NCBI GenBank assembly: GCA_012841845.1
Contig: DUTZ01000359.1
Span: 1 to 10,881 of the forward strand
Length of the DNA stretch: 10,881 bases
Direction of reading: 5' to 3'
Origin: Actinomycetales bacterium
Lineage (GTDB): Bacteria > Actinomycetota > Actinomycetes > Mycobacteriales > Mycobacteriaceae
Notes under the pieces: model-generated
What the model saw: the letters and a program-made list of their open reading frames with translations, nothing else
What the model was told of the DNA's origin: nothing
Databases searched by the model: none
Shown: positions 1 through 3,698 of the stretch, piece by piece
How positions within the stretch are numbered: position 1 is the first letter of the stretch
How the letters are laid out: every line of letters begins with the position of its first letter
Program-made: the position numbers and the translations under genes

Positions 1-70
1 CGGCCGCGCTCGCGAGCGTGTCGGCGTCGGTGTGGACGGTGATCGTCCGGGGCTCGGGGTCGGGGGACAC
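1..70 (-). CDS. pgl: 6-phosphogluconolactonase, N-terminal fragment (cut by window edge)
   Basis: Reading the minus strand from a GTG at 70, an open frame runs to the left edge: 23 codons containing TITVHTDADTLASAA. A strong Shine-Dalgarno, GAGGAGG (complement of 75-81), ends four bases before the GTG, which fixes the start. The pattern of a short beta strand, Asp, and then an alpha helix beginning Leu-Ala-x-Ala-Ala is the usual beginning of Pgl/DevB proteins, which hydrolyse 6-phosphogluconolactone in the cytosolic oxidative pentose phosphate pathway. The second argument is synteny: pgl normally follows opcA directly in Mycobacterium and Corynebacterium, and here opcA is the next minus-strand gene upstream, 2.7 kb away beyond a plus-strand cassette. 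Twenty-three residues are not diagnostic alone, so the assignment rests mostly on context. No catalytic residues fall inside the window. Confidence 0.62.
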   Translation of the reverse strand, partial: MSPDPEPRTITVHTDADTLASAA

Positions 71-126
71 GGGGCCTCCTCGGTGGCGGGTCGGCGGTCC
101 GGTCGGGGCCGGATCGGTCGCCGTCC

Positions 127-132
127 ACCCTA
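127..132 (-). promoter_or_regulatory. Possible -10 box for pgl
   Basis: The minus strand reads TAGGGT here, a TANNNT match that would start transcription near position 120, giving a leader of about 50 bases before the GTG at 70. A -35 with 16-18 base spacing would fall at about 149-156, on top of the leftmost GTTCAC repeat, and has no good TTGACA match. If correct, pgl has its own promoter, as expected after separation from the tkt-opcA operon. Confidence 0.3.
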
Positions 133-149
133 GCCGCGCCCCGGCGGGG

Positions 150-193
150 GTTCACGGCCCCGAGACCCGGCGTTCACCCGGAGTGAACGCGCG
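150..193 (+). promoter_or_regulatory. PHO-box-like operator (GTTCAC direct repeats at 11-base register)
   Basis: GTTCACG at 150-156 and GTTCACC at 172-178 begin exactly 22 bases apart, which is two 11-base units. The Streptomyces PhoP 'PHO box' consists of 11-base direct-repeat units whose first seven bases approximate GTTCACC, and the mycobacterial phosphate regulator RegX3 is reported to use related sequence. Split in that register, units are 150-160 (good), 161-171 (degenerate), 172-182 (perfect core) and 183-193 (GTGAACG, partial). The last two also make a perfect inverted repeat: 8-base arms GCGTTCAC at 170-177 and GTGAACGC at 183-190 with a 5-base centre. The element overlaps the expected -35 region of the 199-204 promoter, the normal place for such an activator. 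GTTCAC also occurs within nearby coding sequence (for example 820, 1138 and 1262), so the spacing and position, not the hexamer alone, are the evidence. Confidence 0.55.
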
Positions 194-198
194 CCCAG

Positions 199-204
199 TA
201 CCGT
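199..204 (+). promoter_or_regulatory. -10 box of the phosphate cassette, leaderless start
   Basis: TACCGT fits the actinobacterial TANNNT -10 and is followed by seven bases (cacccgc) before the ATG at 212, so transcription should begin at or beside the A of the start codon. There is no Shine-Dalgarno upstream of 212, which agrees with a leaderless mRNA. No TTGACA-like -35 is present; that region is occupied by the GTTCACC repeats, suggesting dependence on an activator. Confidence 0.5.
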
Positions 205-211
205 CACCCGC

Positions 212-1456
212 ATGGCAGCGACGGTTGACGACCAAGAACGGCCCGATACCGAGGTGCCGCCCGAGGCCGAACCCGGTGAGGCGTCGGCGCCCAGGAACCC
301 GCTGCGCGTCCTCGGGCTGAGCGGGACGGCTGAGAGCTGGGTGAGCTGGATCTCCGTCGCCGTGGCGGTGTGGATCCTCATCACCGCCGTGAGCGTGATC
401 GGCGACGGCTTCAGCGCCGCCACCGGCGGGCAGGCCGAGGAGCTCTTCCAGTTCGCCACCAACCCGTTCGTGGCACTGACCATCGGCATCCTCGCCACCG
501 TCGGCACCCAGTCCTCCTCCACCACGACCTCGATCGTCGTGGGCCTGGCCGCGGGCGGGCTGCCCATGGAGATCGCGATCCCCATGCTCATGGGCGCGAA
601 CCTCGGCACCACCGTCACCAACACGCTCGTGTCGATGGGCATGGCCGGCAACAAGGAGCAGTTCCGCCGGGCGTTCTCCGCGGCGTCGGTGCACGACTTC
701 TACAACATCATGGCGGTCGCGATCCTGCTGCCCGTCGAACTGCTCACCGGCTTCCTCGACACGACGTCGGAGGCGGTGTCCGGGGCGGTCTCGGGCGACG
801 GCGGGATCGTGGCGGCCGCGTTCACGGCGTTCGGGGACGCGGTCAAGGCCGTCACCTCCCCGGGAGCCGACTTCTTCGAGTGGGCGGTCTCCCCGCTCCC
901 GGAGGTCTGGGGCGGGATCGTCCTCATCGCGGTGGGCGTGGCGCTGATCCTCCTGGTGATCGGGTTCATCGGGAACATGATGAAGTCGCTCATGGTGGGC
1001 CGCGCCAAGAAGATCCTCCACGGCGCCATCGGCCGCGGCCCGCTGTCGGGGATCGGCTCCGGCACCGTCATCACGATGATCGTGCAGTCCTCCTCCACGA
1101 CCACCTCGCTGGTCGTCCCGCTCGCCGGGTCGGGGGCGTTCACCATCCGGCAGATCTACCCGTTCACGGTGGGTGCCAACATCGGGACCACGCTCACCGC
1201 GCTCATCGCCTCGTTCGCCTTCACCGGGATCGAGGGGCAGCTCGCGCTGCAGGCCGCGCTCGTTCACCTGTTCTTCAACGTCACGGCCGCGATCGTCATC
1301 TTCGGCCTGCCGTTCCTGCGGCCACTGCCCGTCAAGGGGGCGACGTGGCTCGGGGATCTGTGCGCCCAGCGCCGGATCTGGGCGGTCGTCTGGGTCGTCA
1401 GCGTCTTCGTGGTCCTCCCGCTCGTCTTTATCGCCCTCACCACGGCCCTCGGCTAG
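212..1456 (+). CDS. Na+/phosphate cotransporter, NptA/PF02690 family
   Basis: This 414-residue membrane protein should import inorganic phosphate driven by sodium. It carries the duplicated signature of the Na/Pi cotransporter family: QSSSTTTS at 100-107 and again at 292-299, each followed by GANLGTT (128-134) or GANIGTT (321-327). These paired motifs lie in the two inverted structural repeats that form the substrate site. The first 45 residues are hydrophilic and acidic, followed by hydrophobic segments near 47-66, 85-98, 163-180, 233-254, 340-370 and 388-411. Many bacterial members (for example YjbB) continue into a cytoplasmic PhoU-like domain of 100-200 residues; this one stops soon after its last membrane segment and lacks it. 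The ATG at 212 has no Shine-Dalgarno but lies seven bases after a -10 box, so a leaderless start is likely. The stop codon abuts the ribosome site of the next gene. It is the first gene of a three-gene operon behind a PHO-box-like element. Confidence 0.92.
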   Translation: MAATVDDQERPDTEVPPEAEPGEASAPRNPLRVLGLSGTAESWVSWISVAVAVWILITAVSVIGDGFSAATGGQAEELFQFATNPFVALTIGILATVGTQSSSTTTSIVVGLAAGGLPMEIAIPMLMGANLGTTVTNTLVSMGMAGNKEQFRRAFSAASVHDFYNIMAVAILLPVELLTGFLDTTSEAVSGAVSGDGGIVAAAFTAFGDAVKAVTSPGADFFEWAVSPLPEVWGGIVLIAVGVALILLVIGFIGNMMKSLMVGRAKKILHGAIGRGPLSGIGSGTVITMIVQSSSTTTSLVVPLAGSGAFTIRQIYPFTVGANIGTTLTALIASFAFTGIEGQLALQAALVHLFFNVTAAIVIFGLPFLRPLPVKGATWLGDLCAQRRIWAVVWVVSVFVVLPLVFIALTTALG

Positions 1457-1469
1457 GAGACCACGGATC

Positions 1470-1727
1470 ATGGAGAACGCAGACTTCGAAGCCCACCTCG
1501 AGGCGATGCTCGCCGAGACGGAGGAGACGGCCCGGGAGCTCCGTGCCGAGCTCCGCGAGCTCCGGTCGCAGCGGGAGGAGGGCGCCCGGCGCGCCGCCCA
1601 GCACGCGGAGATCGAGCGGCTGGAGGAGCACCTGGCGCAGACCCGGGTCGACTGGGCCAAGGTGCGCCAGTTCCTCGAGGAGGCCGTCCGCGAGCTGCGC
1701 GACAAGCGGAAGGGGTCGGAGGCGTGA
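1470..1727 (+). CDS. Small charged coiled-coil protein, unknown function
   Basis: I do not recognise a family. The 85-residue product is almost entirely predicted helix, with about 19 Glu and 13 Arg, regular Leu/Ala spacing (for example TARELRAELRELRSQ near 20-34 and IERLEEHL near 47-54), and a single Trp near residue 61; it has no signal peptide, membrane segment or cysteine. It is probably a cytoplasmic coiled coil or short helical bundle. The ATG at 1470 is chosen because AGGAGA at 1455-1460 sits nine bases upstream, overlapping the transporter stop; an open frame extends further upstream only as a shadow of the transporter gene. Its stop overlaps the GTG of the PstS-like gene (GTGA, 1724-1727), so translation is probably coupled. 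Given the missing PhoU tail on the transporter, it could be a detached regulatory helix, but that is only inference from context. Confidence 0.75.
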   Translation: MENADFEAHLEAMLAETEETARELRAELRELRSQREEGARRAAQHAEIERLEEHLAQTRVDWAKVRQFLEEAVRELRDKRKGSEA

Positions 1728-2734
1728 CCGGCACCGGACGGCGACAGTTCGCGCGCGCGGCCGCGGCCCTGACGGGCGTGGCGCTCGTGGCCTCCCTCGC
1801 GGCATGCGGCAGCGACGCGGACCCCGAGGGCGCGATCGAGATCTCCGGTTCCGCCACGGTCGAACCGATCACGCAGGCCGTCGCCGACCGCGGCGGCTTC
1901 GACGTGGCGATCCGGGCCGAGGGCACCACGGACGGCTTCGAGCGCTTCTGCGCCGGCGAGACCGCGGTGCACAACGCCTCGGTGCCCGTCCCCGGCGCCG
2001 GCCAGCTCACCGACTTCCTCGCCGAGTGCGAGCGGAACGACGTGGAGTTCGTCGAGATCCCCGTCGCGCTTGACGCGCTCACCCTGGTGATCCACGCGAC
2101 CAACACCTTCGCCCGGGACCTCACCATGGACGAGGTGCGGCGGATGTGGGAGCCCGGCTCCGAGGTGACGACGTGGGCGGACGTGCGGCCCGAGTGGCCC
2201 GACGACGAGGTGTCCTTCTACGGCCGACCGGACGGGTCCGGGACCTTCGAGTACTTCTCCCACCAGGTCTCCGGTGAGGCCGGCGAGCTCCGCGACGACT
2301 ACCGGGCCACCGACGACGTCCGCGAGCTGGCCGGGTGGCTCGCCGAGGACCCGCAGGGGATGGGCTTCATGGGCGCCGGCAACTACCTCGCGGCGCCGGG
2401 GGAGGACCGCGACCGGATCACCAACGTCGCCATCGACGGCGTGGTGCCGACCCGGGAGGAGGCGCAGTCCGGCGCGTACCGGCCCTTCACCCGCCCCCTG
2501 TTCGTCTACGTCAACACCGACCTCGCCGCCGAGGACGAGGACGTGACGCGGTTCGTGGACTACTACGTCGACGAGGTCCAGAGCATCCTGCCGCTGGTGT
2601 ACTTCTACCCGCTGCCCGACGACGTCCACGACGCCGCGGCCGAGCGGTGGCACGACCGCACGCCGGGAACGATGTTCGGCGGCGACCCGTTCGGCGAGGT
2701 GGACCTGCGCGAGGCCCTGGGCACCGAGGGCTGA
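1724..2734 (+). CDS. PstS/SphX-like phosphate-binding lipoprotein
   Basis: This 336-residue extracytoplasmic solute-binding protein should capture phosphate at the outer face of the membrane. The N-terminus has a paired-arginine stretch (GRRQFARA, 5-12), a hydrophobic core, and a lipobox ending L25-A-A-C28, so Cys28 is the likely lipid anchor; the RRxF pattern hints at Tat export. Recognisable ligand-binding elements are SGSATVEPIT (41-50), EGTTDGFERFCAGE (66-79), and RPDGSGTFEYF (168-178). The last matches the RxDGSGT phosphate loop of E. coli PstS. Cys76 and Cys102 could form the disulfide seen in SphX-type proteins. The segment around 105-160 (VEFVEIPVALDALTLVIHATN, then LTMDEVRRMW) is also typical of SphX. 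The GTG at 1724 overlaps the preceding stop, with GGAGG at 1718-1722 and AAGGGG at 1710-1715 upstream. It is unusual in that no pstC, pstA or pstB accompanies it; instead it is last in an operon led by a Na+/Pi transporter. Confidence 0.9.
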   Translation: MTGTGRRQFARAAAALTGVALVASLAACGSDADPEGAIEISGSATVEPITQAVADRGGFDVAIRAEGTTDGFERFCAGETAVHNASVPVPGAGQLTDFLAECERNDVEFVEIPVALDALTLVIHATNTFARDLTMDEVRRMWEPGSEVTTWADVRPEWPDDEVSFYGRPDGSGTFEYFSHQVSGEAGELRDDYRATDDVRELAGWLAEDPQGMGFMGAGNYLAAPGEDRDRITNVAIDGVVPTREEAQSGAYRPFTRPLFVYVNTDLAAEDEDVTRFVDYYVDEVQSILPLVYFYPLPDDVHDAAAERWHDRTPGTMFGGDPFGEVDLREALGTEG

Positions 2735-2735
2735 C

Positions 2736-2777
2736 CCGGCCCCGCGCCCGCGCCGTCGGTGCGGGCGTCGTGGCCGG
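2736..2777. terminator. Long GC hairpin between convergent operons, probable bidirectional terminator
   Basis: The whole 43-base gap folds on itself. CCGGCC (2736-2741) pairs with GGCCGG (2772-2777), and CGCCCGC (2745-2751) pairs with GCGGGCG (2761-2767), leaving a nine-base loop and a small asymmetric internal loop. It lies directly after the stop of the PstS-like gene and directly after the stop of opcA on the other strand, so it can serve both. Neither side has a T tract, so if it terminates it is of the tract-less kind often proposed in actinobacteria. Confidence 0.6.
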
Positions 2778-3698
2778 TCAGCGCACCGAGGCCGAGGTGT
2801 AGATCACGCGGTCGTGGCAGGCCAGCGCGTCGGCGTACACGCCGTCCGCGTCCATCCGGCGCAGCTCCTCGGCCAGGCAGTCGGCCACGGACCGGGCGAC
2901 CAGCGCCACCCGGGTCGGCGGCTGTCCGGTCACGCGGAGCTCCGCGGTGGTGGGGCCCACCTGCTCGAGGACGATCGACCCGGAGGCGCGTTCGAGCACG
3001 ACCATCGAGGGCCCGACGGCCCGGTGCACGTCGATCCCGAGCCGGGAGGCCAGCCAGCCGCCGGCGAGATCGACCGACGCGGCTCGTTCGGCGCCGCACA
3101 CGGTGGCGCCGGTGATCGGTTCGAACGGTGCGCGGTCGAGGGTCGCGGCGAGCAGGGACCGCCAGTGGGTGATCCGGGCCCAGGCGAGGTCGGTGTCGCC
3201 GGGGGAGTAGCCGGCGGCCCGCTTGGCGAGCGCGTCGGTGGGGTGCCCCTCGGCGTCGGAGTCGACGATGCGGCGCCGCGCCAGCCGGCCCACCTTGTCG
3301 ACGGCGAGCAGGGTGGGCGAGTTCCGCGGCCACCACACCGCGACCGGGGTGTCCGGCAGCAGCAGCGGGGTGACGAGGGACGCGGACTGCGAGGCCATGC
3401 CGCCGGACGTCCGCAGCACCACGACCTCGGCCGCGCCGGCGTCGCCGCCCACGCGGATCTGCGCGTCGAGCCGACTGGCCGCCGCCCGGCTGCCCCGGAT
3501 CACCACGATGACGCGGCACGGGTGCTCGCGGCTCGCCTCGTTGGCGGCGTCGATGGCCGCCTCGCTGCCGCGGACGTGGTCGGTGAGGACGATGAGCGTG
3601 AGGACGCGGCCGATCGTGGACAGGCCCGCCTCCTCGCGGATCTGCACGAGCTTCTTGGAGATGTCCCGGGTCGAGGTGTCGGGTAGGTCGATGATCAC
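2778..3698 (-). CDS. opcA: Glucose-6-phosphate dehydrogenase assembly protein OpcA
   Basis: OpcA is the partner of Zwf: in cyanobacteria and actinobacteria it promotes assembly and activity of glucose-6-phosphate dehydrogenase. The 306-residue product begins [17 protein letters not shown], the family's characteristic start (IxDLPDT followed by a Lys-Lys helix), and continues with HPCRVIVVI near 59-67, LPDTPVAVWWP near 114-124 and DLAWARITHWR near 170-180, all typical of OpcA. Length is normal. The GTG start at 3698 overlaps the zwf stop (GTGA, 3695-3698), and GGAGG (complement of 3704-3708) precedes it by five bases. It is the last gene of the tkt operon here; the usual next gene, pgl, is not adjacent but displaced to the left edge of the window. 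Confidence 0.95.
   Translation of the reverse strand: MIIDLPDTSTRDISKKLVQIREEAGLSTIGRVLTLIVLTDHVRGSEAAIDAANEASREHPCRVIVVIRGSRAAASRLDAQIRVGGDAGAAEVVVLRTSGGMASQSASLVTPLLLPDTPVAVWWPRNSPTLLAVDKVGRLARRRIVDSDAEGHPTDALAKRAAGYSPGDTDLAWARITHWRSLLAATLDRAPFEPITGATVCGAERAASVDLAGGWLASRLGIDVHRAVGPSMVVLERASGSIVLEQVGPTTAELRVTGQPPTRVALVARSVADCLAEELRRMDADGVYADALACHDRVIYTSASVR

What the first reader, a model, noticed from the sequence alone, without database searches (positions are those of the whole stretch)
212..2734. Operon pairing a Na+/Pi symporter with a PstS-like lipoprotein: possible binding-protein-assisted secondary phosphate uptake
Seen: a Na/Pi cotransporter with both QSSSTTTS repeats, a coiled-coil protein and a PstS/SphX-like lipoprotein, consecutive on one strand, the last two overlapping by GTGA. 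Known: PstS normally delivers phosphate to the PstCAB ABC transporter, while Na/Pi symporters work without a binding protein; TRAP and tripartite tricarboxylate transporters show that binding proteins can serve secondary carriers. Inference: the lipoprotein may feed phosphate to the symporter, or act as a phosphate sensor for it, forming an uptake unit that I do not know to have been described.
Basis: partly seen in the sequence, partly recalled or inferred. Interest (0 to 1): 0.72.

Follow-up and report, generated by a model that had tools for sequence, protein, structure and literature searches.

The report
Sodium-phosphate symporter with binding lipoprotein
A bacterial relative of the human kidney sodium-phosphate carrier travels as a gene set with a small coiled-coil protein and, in many species, a phosphate-binding lipoprotein, which suggests a phosphate uptake machine that combines a symporter with a binding protein normally seen on ATP-driven pumps.

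Summary
Confirmed: three genes on one strand, an SLC34-type Na/Pi symporter (212-1456), an 85-aa coiled coil (CC, 1470-1727) and a PstS-fold lipoprotein (SBP, 1724-2734), the last two overlapping by GTGA. The linkage is no accident. Of 30 named actinobacterial relatives found through the lipoprotein, 29 carry symporter-CC-SBP in that order; in the 30th the contig ends first. None of the 30 has pstC beside it; 38 of 50 outgroup loci do. The lipoproteins are one clade and the three proteins co-diverge (r 0.90-0.92). A symporter-anchored census corrects the picture: of 80 symporters 33 have CC+SBP, 29 CC only, 17 neither, 1 SBP only. CC is the commoner partner: in Corynebacterium all 49 CC genomes have the symporter. 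SBP is optional. Most Pi contacts are kept in its pocket. Best explanation: binding-protein-assisted Na+/Pi symport with CC as cytoplasmic accessory regulator. Delivery of Pi from SBP to symporter is inferred, not shown. If true, this is a fourth family of SBP-assisted secondary carriers after TRAP, TTT and TAXI-GltS (PMC12344293).

The parts
212..1456 (+). SLC34-type Na+/Pi symporter, 414 aa, two Na_Pi_cotrans stretches, QSSSTTTS at aa 100-107 and 292-299, no PhoU domain found
   Evidence: PF02690 and NF037997 over cut-off; nearest solved chain SLC34 member 2a, 9z60, 174 bits
1470..1727 (+). CC: 85-aa coiled-coil accessory protein; two helices (2-57, 62-84) predicted; M1, E18, W62 invariant and L10, L24, E27, Q44, E47 nearly so in 31 sequences
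   Evidence: ORF between symporter and SBP in 29 of 29 loci that reach it; alignment; AF2 pLDDT 86.8, pTM 0.47; no Pfam family over cut-off
1724..2734 (+). SBP: PstS/SphX-fold lipoprotein, lipobox LAAC with Cys28, most Pi-contact columns kept
   Evidence: PF12849 over cut-off; AF2 pLDDT 91, best fold match 4jwo E 3.3e-25 (the model is of P0001, a near-copy of the window protein); contact columns
1724..1727 (+). GTGA stop/start overlap of CC and SBP, a sign of translational coupling
   Evidence: sequence; 4- or 8-base overlap in 17 of the 18 relatives read
1..70 (-). N-terminal end of pgl (6-phosphogluconolactonase), cut by the contig end; left border of the inserted trio; GTG start at 70 is a guess
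   Evidence: translation read by eye against congeners in which pgl follows opcA; the congener frame of L143 is TIGR01198 pgl, 197.8 bits over 124.45

Best explanation
The trio is a Na+-driven phosphate uptake unit. The SLC34-type symporter moves Pi with Na+. The membrane-anchored PstS-fold lipoprotein captures Pi outside the membrane and raises its effective concentration at, or hands it to, the symporter, so that a carrier of moderate affinity works at low Pi. The coiled coil binds the cytoplasmic side of the PhoU-less symporter as its accessory regulator or assembly factor. Shown here: gene identity, conserved order, coupled CC-SBP junction, co-divergence, association of CC (in Corynebacterium) and of the SBP clade with this symporter, most Pi contacts kept. 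Inferred: physical contact, Pi hand-over, Na+ coupling, and the role of CC.
For: 29 of 30 SBP-anchored named relatives have symporter-CC-SBP (in L021 the symporter is cut by the contig end); the 30th, L039, is cut before it. The 31 trio SBPs are one side of a branch (SH-aLRT 100); the 32 trio symporters likewise among those (98). Distances correlate 0.92/0.90/0.90, 0 of 2000 shuffles as high. 0 of 30 trio SBPs lie by pstC; 38 of 50 outgroup loci have it within 250 bases. 42 of 44 genomes whose symporter has no SBP beside it have no SBP match elsewhere at E<=1e-30. Of seven Pi-contact columns of CpPstS (PMC12421899) five (S43, T45, S86, G173, T174) are identical in 31 of 31 trio SBPs, column 68 is T or S and column 44 S or A; the Arg of other PstS branches is kept as R168 in 31 of 31. 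CC: all 49 CC genomes among 202 have the symporter, 49 of 53 CC hits lie directly 3' of it. Precedent: TAXI-GltS (PMC12344293).
Against: 46 of 80 symporters have no SBP next door, and the SBP state changes 13 times on the symporter tree, so this carrier family does not depend on an SBP as TRAP carriers do. 17 of 80 have neither CC nor SBP, and 10 of 59 symporter genomes of Corynebacterium have no CC at E<=1e-6. Fusions and docking surfaces could not be tested. The 12 trio-specific SBP columns are not shown to lie on a surface. An Arg present in 53 of 53 outgroup SBPs at column 87 is not seen in the trio SBPs, so affinity or specificity may differ. All evidence is genomic.
Confidence: 0.5

Rival explanations
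1. The lipoprotein is a phosphate sensor or regulator of the symporter and not a delivery protein: Pi-loaded SBP touches the symporter from outside and gates it, or CC passes the state of the symporter to PhoR or another cytoplasmic target, as the PhoU domain of NptA does.
For: SBP is optional while the symporter stays. CC is the commoner partner, and no PhoU domain was found in the window symporter or in three relatives. In S. [quoted passage not shown]
Against: No receptor or kinase gene lies in the trio. A ligand-binding lipoprotein of the PstS type is usually a delivery part (established knowledge of ABC systems).
Confidence: 0.25
2. The lipoprotein is an extra PstS that feeds the genome's own PstCAB, and its place beside the symporter only reflects shared control by phosphate starvation.
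For: pstC is present elsewhere in 31 of 32 genomes tested. The fold is that of PstS.
Against: 0 of 30 lie beside pstC. The window genome's pst operon has its own PstS of another family (TIGR00975, 273.8 bits over 205; only 21 bits to the SBP profile). SBP co-diverges with symporter and CC.
Confidence: 0.13
3. The unit handles another oxyanion or organophosphate, or runs outward as a Pi exporter, with SBP fixing specificity.
For: Column 87 Arg is lost in the trio SBPs and column 168 Arg is kept, the reverse of 52 of 53 outgroup SBPs.
Against: Five of seven contact columns of a known Pi site are unchanged and two change conservatively. The QSSS motifs are kept, with single Ser/Thr changes in a few rows.
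Confidence: 0.07
4. Chance neighbours or a selfish cluster with no shared function.
For: The trio entered the window's lineage as an insert between opcA and pgl, so it moves as a block.
Against: Same order, coupled junction and co-divergence across eight named families.
Confidence: 0.03

Closest known systems
TAXI-GltS (Bordetella pertussis BP0403-BP0402; PMC12344293)
   Same: A lipoprotein SBP coupled in translation to a Na+ symporter whose family mostly works alone.
   Different: Other SBP family (TAXI), other carrier family (ESS), substrate glutamate, some fusions known, no coiled-coil third gene reported in the parts I read.
TRAP and tripartite tricarboxylate transporters
   Same: SBP plus secondary carrier plus a small third gene.
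   Different: The third gene is a membrane protein there (recalled); here it is a predicted soluble coiled coil. Carrier and SBP families differ. TRAP carriers are described as strictly coupled to their SBP (PMC9971032, abstract in the listing).
NptA / SLC34 NaPi-II symporters
   Same: Two repeats with QSSS; nearest solved chain is SLC34 member 2a.
   Different: NptA of S. aureus carries a C-terminal PhoU domain (PMC13170248, passages); none was found here, and a separate coiled coil follows instead.
PstSCAB
   Same: PstS-fold lipoprotein with a Pi pocket.
   Different: No PstC beside any of the 30 trio SBPs; below the TIGR02136 cut-off.
Cyanobacterial SphX
   Same: Same wider SBP family and, by eye, a like C-terminal extension; one cyanobacterium (L048) has symporter end, coiled coil and an SphX-type SBP in a row.
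   Different: Outside the trio SBP clade; the 12 other cyanobacterial genomes with the symporter (13 of 386) showed no CC or SBP in the flanks held.

Membership tests
Na/Pi cotransporter family PNaS (TC 2.A.58), SLC34-type | PF02690 / NF037997 over curated cut-off | tested here: met
   113.2 against 29.1 bits; 79.9 against 50 bits
Na/Pi cotransporter family PNaS (TC 2.A.58), SLC34-type | QSSS motif in each of two repeats | tested here: met
   QSSSTTTS at aa 100 and 292; Q100, S101, S102 and Q292, S293, S294 invariant in the 23-row alignment, the third Ser of each nearly so
TIGR01013 subfamily (2a58) | score over curated cut-off | tested here: not met
   173 against 306.15 bits
Na/Pi cotransporter family PNaS (TC 2.A.58), SLC34-type | Na+-coupled Pi transport | not testable with these tools
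   needs an uptake assay
PstS (TIGR02136, PF12849) | PF12849 fold and score | tested here: met
   80.6 against 27 bits; AF2 model matches 4jwo, 9jwy, 4gd5
PstS (TIGR02136, PF12849) | TIGR02136 curated cut-off | tested here: not met
   162.3 against 206.6 bits
PstS (TIGR02136, PF12849) | gene beside pstCAB | tested here: not met
   0 of 30 trio SBPs; 38 of 50 outgroup loci within 250 bases
PstS (TIGR02136, PF12849) | Pi-contact residues | tested here: inconclusive
   five of seven contact columns identical in 31 of 31, columns 44 (S/A) and 68 (T/S) conservative, R168 kept, but column 87 Arg of all 53 outgroup rows lost; contacts taken from PMC12421899; no binding measured
SBP-dependent secondary transporters (as a mode of action) | SBP gene linked and coupled to a secondary carrier | tested here: met
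   29 of 29 loci that reach it; 4- or 8-base CC/SBP overlap in 17 of 18 read
SBP-dependent secondary transporters (as a mode of action) | carrier activity depends on, or is raised by, the SBP | not testable with these tools
   needs reconstitution; the 46 of 80 symporters without SBP speak against strict dependence of the family
SBP-dependent secondary transporters (as a mode of action) | natural fusions of SBP and carrier | not tested
   a fusion would exceed the length range of the searches
TRAP / TTT / TAXI-GltS (as families) | carrier of the DctM, TctA or GltS family | tested here: not met
   the only Pfam family over cut-off in the carrier is PF02690
PhoU-type accessory regulators | PhoU domain in CC or symporter | tested here: not met
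   no PhoU match for the window proteins, three symporter relatives or the 31 CC sequences

The most novel reading that the evidence does not exclude
A fourth family of binding-protein-assisted secondary transporters, the first for an inorganic nutrient ion and the first built on the SLC34 (NaPi-II) fold, with a previously undescribed coiled-coil subunit that takes the place of the PhoU domain; the SBP is a detachable affinity module that was added once and lost many times.
Probability: 0.45. Interest if true: 0.86.

Novelty: new variant of a known kind. Interest (0 to 1): 0.73.

Why it matters
The TAXI-GltS paper says that before it only TRAP and TTT carriers were known to work with a soluble SBP, suggests that an SBP may need an elevator-type carrier, and looks to further classes to test this (PMC12344293, Discussion). 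SLC34 carriers have been modelled as elevators (PMC6325988, passages), so the trio is an independent test, on a fold shared with human kidney phosphate carriers. Because close relatives differ naturally in having or lacking the SBP, the effect of an SBP on nearly the same carrier can be measured. The coiled coil could add a new kind to the three known clades of phosphate accessory regulators (PMC13170248, passages).

Tried and rejected
Considered and rejected: (1) chance adjacency, because of 29 of 30 loci, one SBP clade and co-divergence. (2) A PstS displaced from pst in this genome only: 0 of 30 relatives are beside pstC. (3) Replacement of a missing Pst: pstC is over cut-off in 31 of 32 genomes. 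(4) An obligatory SBP as in TRAP: 46 of 80 symporters lack it. My first, SBP-anchored sampling hid this; I corrected it after names such as Kocuria appeared among the listed symporters but not among the listed SBP relatives.

Led nowhere: fold search with the coiled coil (0 matches); promoter and terminator scan (0 and 0); Pfam on the coiled coil (eight weak families, each in 1 of 31 members); a wider cyanobacterial trio (only L048's genome of 13 with the symporter). Papers: the listings of searches showed no paper on this gene set by title or abstract; of two searches only 20 of 370 and 20 of 2,206 papers were listed, and the library lacks most subscription journals, so this is no proof of absence. 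Searches judged distances by stop-to-stop ORFs and so missed some coiled coils, which uses the matched stretch, replaces them. Genome G1586 (symporter and CC, no SBP; the same locus as G1116) was left out of the census of 80 by oversight.
Full report
WHAT IS THERE. The window is the whole contig C207 of a fragmented actinobacterial assembly (2.73 Mb, 606 contigs, 78% complete). On the + strand lie a 414-aa Na/Pi symporter (212-1456), an 85-aa coiled coil (CC, 1470-1727) and a 336-aa lipoprotein (SBP, 1724-2734). Symporter and CC are 13 bases apart; CC and SBP overlap by GTGA. The symporter has two PF02690 stretches with QSSSTTTS in each and no PhoU match; its nearest solved relative is SLC34 member 2a (9z60, 174 bits). 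The SBP is a PstS-fold protein (PF12849; model pLDDT 91, best PDB match 4jwo, E 3.3e-25) with a lipobox Cys invariant in 36 of 36 aligned sequences. CC is predicted as two helices (pLDDT 86.8), matches no Pfam family over its cut-off and no PDB fold.

IS THE LINKAGE REAL. A protein search listed 63 close SBP sequences (304 bits or more, the window's own included) and then a gap to 229 bits; 120 of 378 hits were listed. With an alignment of 36 of the 63, a scan of species genomes returned the best 80 of 429 related stretches. The first 30 (L017-L046) are the close ones, all Actinomycetota: Hoyosella, Corynebacterium, Nesterenkonia, Propioniferax, Gulosibacter, Kineosphaera, Isoptericola, Ruania, Microbacterium, Frigoribacterium, Mobilicoccus, Micrococcus. 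In 29 of these 30 the symporter lies directly upstream with a CC frame between (in L021 the symporter is cut by the contig end); in L039 the contig ends 45 bases before the SBP match. In 18 of the 29 loci I read the CC/SBP junction: 10 overlap by 4 bases, 7 by 8, 1 by 1; the other 11 were not read because the mechanical SBP start lies further upstream. With a Salinispora PstC as query, PstC lies within 250 bases of the SBP in 38 of the 50 outgroup loci L047-L096 (40 of 50 within 3 kb) and near none of the 30 trio SBPs, some of which have short flanks (counted by hand from its rows).

HISTORY. The 31 trio SBPs (window included) are one side of a branch with SH-aLRT 100 among 84 rows; the fragment L014 was dropped. 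The 32 trio symporters are one side of a branch (98) among 72 rows, next to nine cyanobacterial symporters (100). Both symporter trees carry a long-branch warning from the program. Symporter, CC and SBP distances over 30 loci correlate at 0.92, 0.90 and 0.90, above all of 2000 shuffles. In the window's own genus the trio is an insert: in 21 congeners with a locus (of 22 others with an opcA match) opcA is followed by pgl, about 30-60 bases on in 18 and inside an ORF with an earlier mechanical start in 3, while here the trio stands between opcA and the beginning of pgl. OpcA is TIGR00534 (237.3 bits, slightly under its cut-off of 256.25) and the congener frame of L143 is TIGR01198 pgl over cut-off. 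The window's own pgl end was read by eye; blastn of the left 211 bases gave no hit. In one search (101 genomes, 9 with any match) the only other same-genus match is weak (G019, E 2.5e-4).

THE CORRECTION. Loci found through the SBP cannot show symporters without one. I therefore searched with the symporter. At E<=1e-60, 2 of 397 genomes of the window's order and 32 of 396 of its phylum have a match; the 31 phylum genomes other than the window score only 283-352 bits, and the 29 loci returned for them show no CC or SBP in the flanks held, up to 1.5 kb. At E<=1e-100, 23 of 197 genomes in the family of a Nesterenkonia genome and 59 of 201 in the genus of Corynebacterium glaucum have it. Of 84 symporters so found and inspected (pieces under 300 bits, three overlapping loci L176, L197, L198, and by oversight genome G1586 left out), 80 have at least 1 kb downstream: CC and SBP 33, CC alone 29, neither 17, SBP without CC 1. 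The CC threshold was lax (E<=0.05); the weakest counted, L249, has 15 bits, all others 35.8 or more. On a tree of 94 symporters the SBP state changes 13 times by parsimony, and starred branches force at least 9 changes for the CC+SBP label. As the SBP itself is one clade, repeated loss is the simplest reading; transfer is not excluded. Of 44 genomes whose symporter had no SBP beside it (G1586 included), 42 have no SBP match at E<=1e-30; G1506 has one beside its other symporter, in two pieces, and G1327 one of 220 bits, in the range of outgroup SBPs. Two positive controls were found. CC was then sought by itself: 49 of 202 Corynebacterium genomes have it at E<=1e-6, all 49 have the symporter, and 49 of 53 hits lie directly 3' of it; the other four lie within 3 kb of one. 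10 of the 59 symporter genomes have no CC at this threshold. So CC is the regular partner of this symporter branch, and the SBP an optional third part. The exception to its tie with the symporter is one 97-aa SBP fragment in G062 with no symporter match in 20 kb.

DOES THE SBP LOOK LIKE A PI BINDER. In CpPstS seven residues contact Pi, and an Arg does so in other PstS branches (PMC12421899, passages read). By my mapping over the profile alignment these are window S43, A44, T45, T68, S86, G173, T174 and R168. Columns 43, 45, 86, 173 and 174 are identical in 31 of 31 trio SBPs; column 44 is S (18) or A (13), column 68 S (16) or T (15); S172, a neighbour, is also constant. Two Arg columns differ from the 53 outgroup rows: 168 is Arg in 31 of 31 trio and 1 of 53 outgroup SBPs, and 87 is Arg in 53 of 53 outgroup SBPs but mostly V, E, T or I in the trio (commonest five letters shown, 30 of 31, no Arg among them; the window has V). 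Pi binding is therefore likely, with a changed pocket.

HOW IT MOST LIKELY WORKS. The window genome has its own pstS, pstC, pstA, pstB and phoU on contig C242, each over its NCBIfam cut-off, and pstC is over cut-off in 31 of 32 genomes tested; the exception is G122, the genome of the metagenome record L038. The trio is thus an additional system. The best reading is that the anchored SBP supplies the symporter with Pi at low concentration, and that CC regulates or assembles the PhoU-less symporter from inside. The alternative, that SBP or CC is a sensor, is kept at 0.25. In S. aureus the PhoU domain of NptA has such a regulatory role (PMC13170248, passages), and CC is a candidate for a further kind of accessory regulator; this is inference.

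WHAT IS KNOWN. TAXI-GltS is the closest precedent (PMC12344293: passages and the Discussion read): an SBP coupled to a symporter whose family mostly works alone, as here. Its authors name TRAP and TTT as the only earlier families, suggest a link to the elevator mechanism and look to further classes as a test. NaPi-II carriers were modelled as elevators (PMC6325988, passages). The listings of searches showed no paper on a symporter-CC-SBP gene set. Passages of PMC8276074, PMC11358556 and PMC12260270 mention none either. By mode of action this would be a new variant of a known kind; it is not a member of TRAP, TTT or TAXI-GltS.

LIMITS. All evidence is genomic. Trees are quick ones without bootstrap. 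No complex could be predicted with the tools at hand, and fusions were not tested. The window's assembly is 78% complete.

Noticed in passing
window 1-2778: The trio is an insert between opcA and pgl of the pentose phosphate cluster; in the 21 congeners with a locus pgl follows opcA.
   Followed up: yes
window 1470-1727: CC belongs to a family without Pfam domain, named 'hypothetical protein' or 'uncharacterized protein' where a source names it; in 202 Corynebacterium genomes it was found only in genomes with this symporter.
   Followed up: yes
window 1724-2734, residues 87 and 168: An Arg of the Pi pocket sits at column 168 in trio SBPs and at column 87 in the outgroup SBPs, an exchange that may change affinity.
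   Followed up: partly
L048 1-1763: A cyanobacterium (cf. Phormidesmis LEGE 11477) has symporter end, a coiled coil (E 1e-6 to the CC profile) and an SphX-type SBP in a row; the 12 other cyanobacterial genomes with the symporter showed neither gene in the flanks held.
   Followed up: partly
L024 6330-10572; L254, L255: Isoptericola halotolerans has symporter-CC-SBP-symporter-CC; two genomes of the Corynebacterium set have a second symporter after the SBP without CC.
   Followed up: partly
L014 9767-10213 (G062): Fragment of a trio-type SBP with no symporter match within 20 kb, probably a remnant.
   Followed up: no
G1548 C1:620307-621353; G1610 C1:1834097-1835082: Two CC matches in tandem after one symporter.
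   Followed up: no
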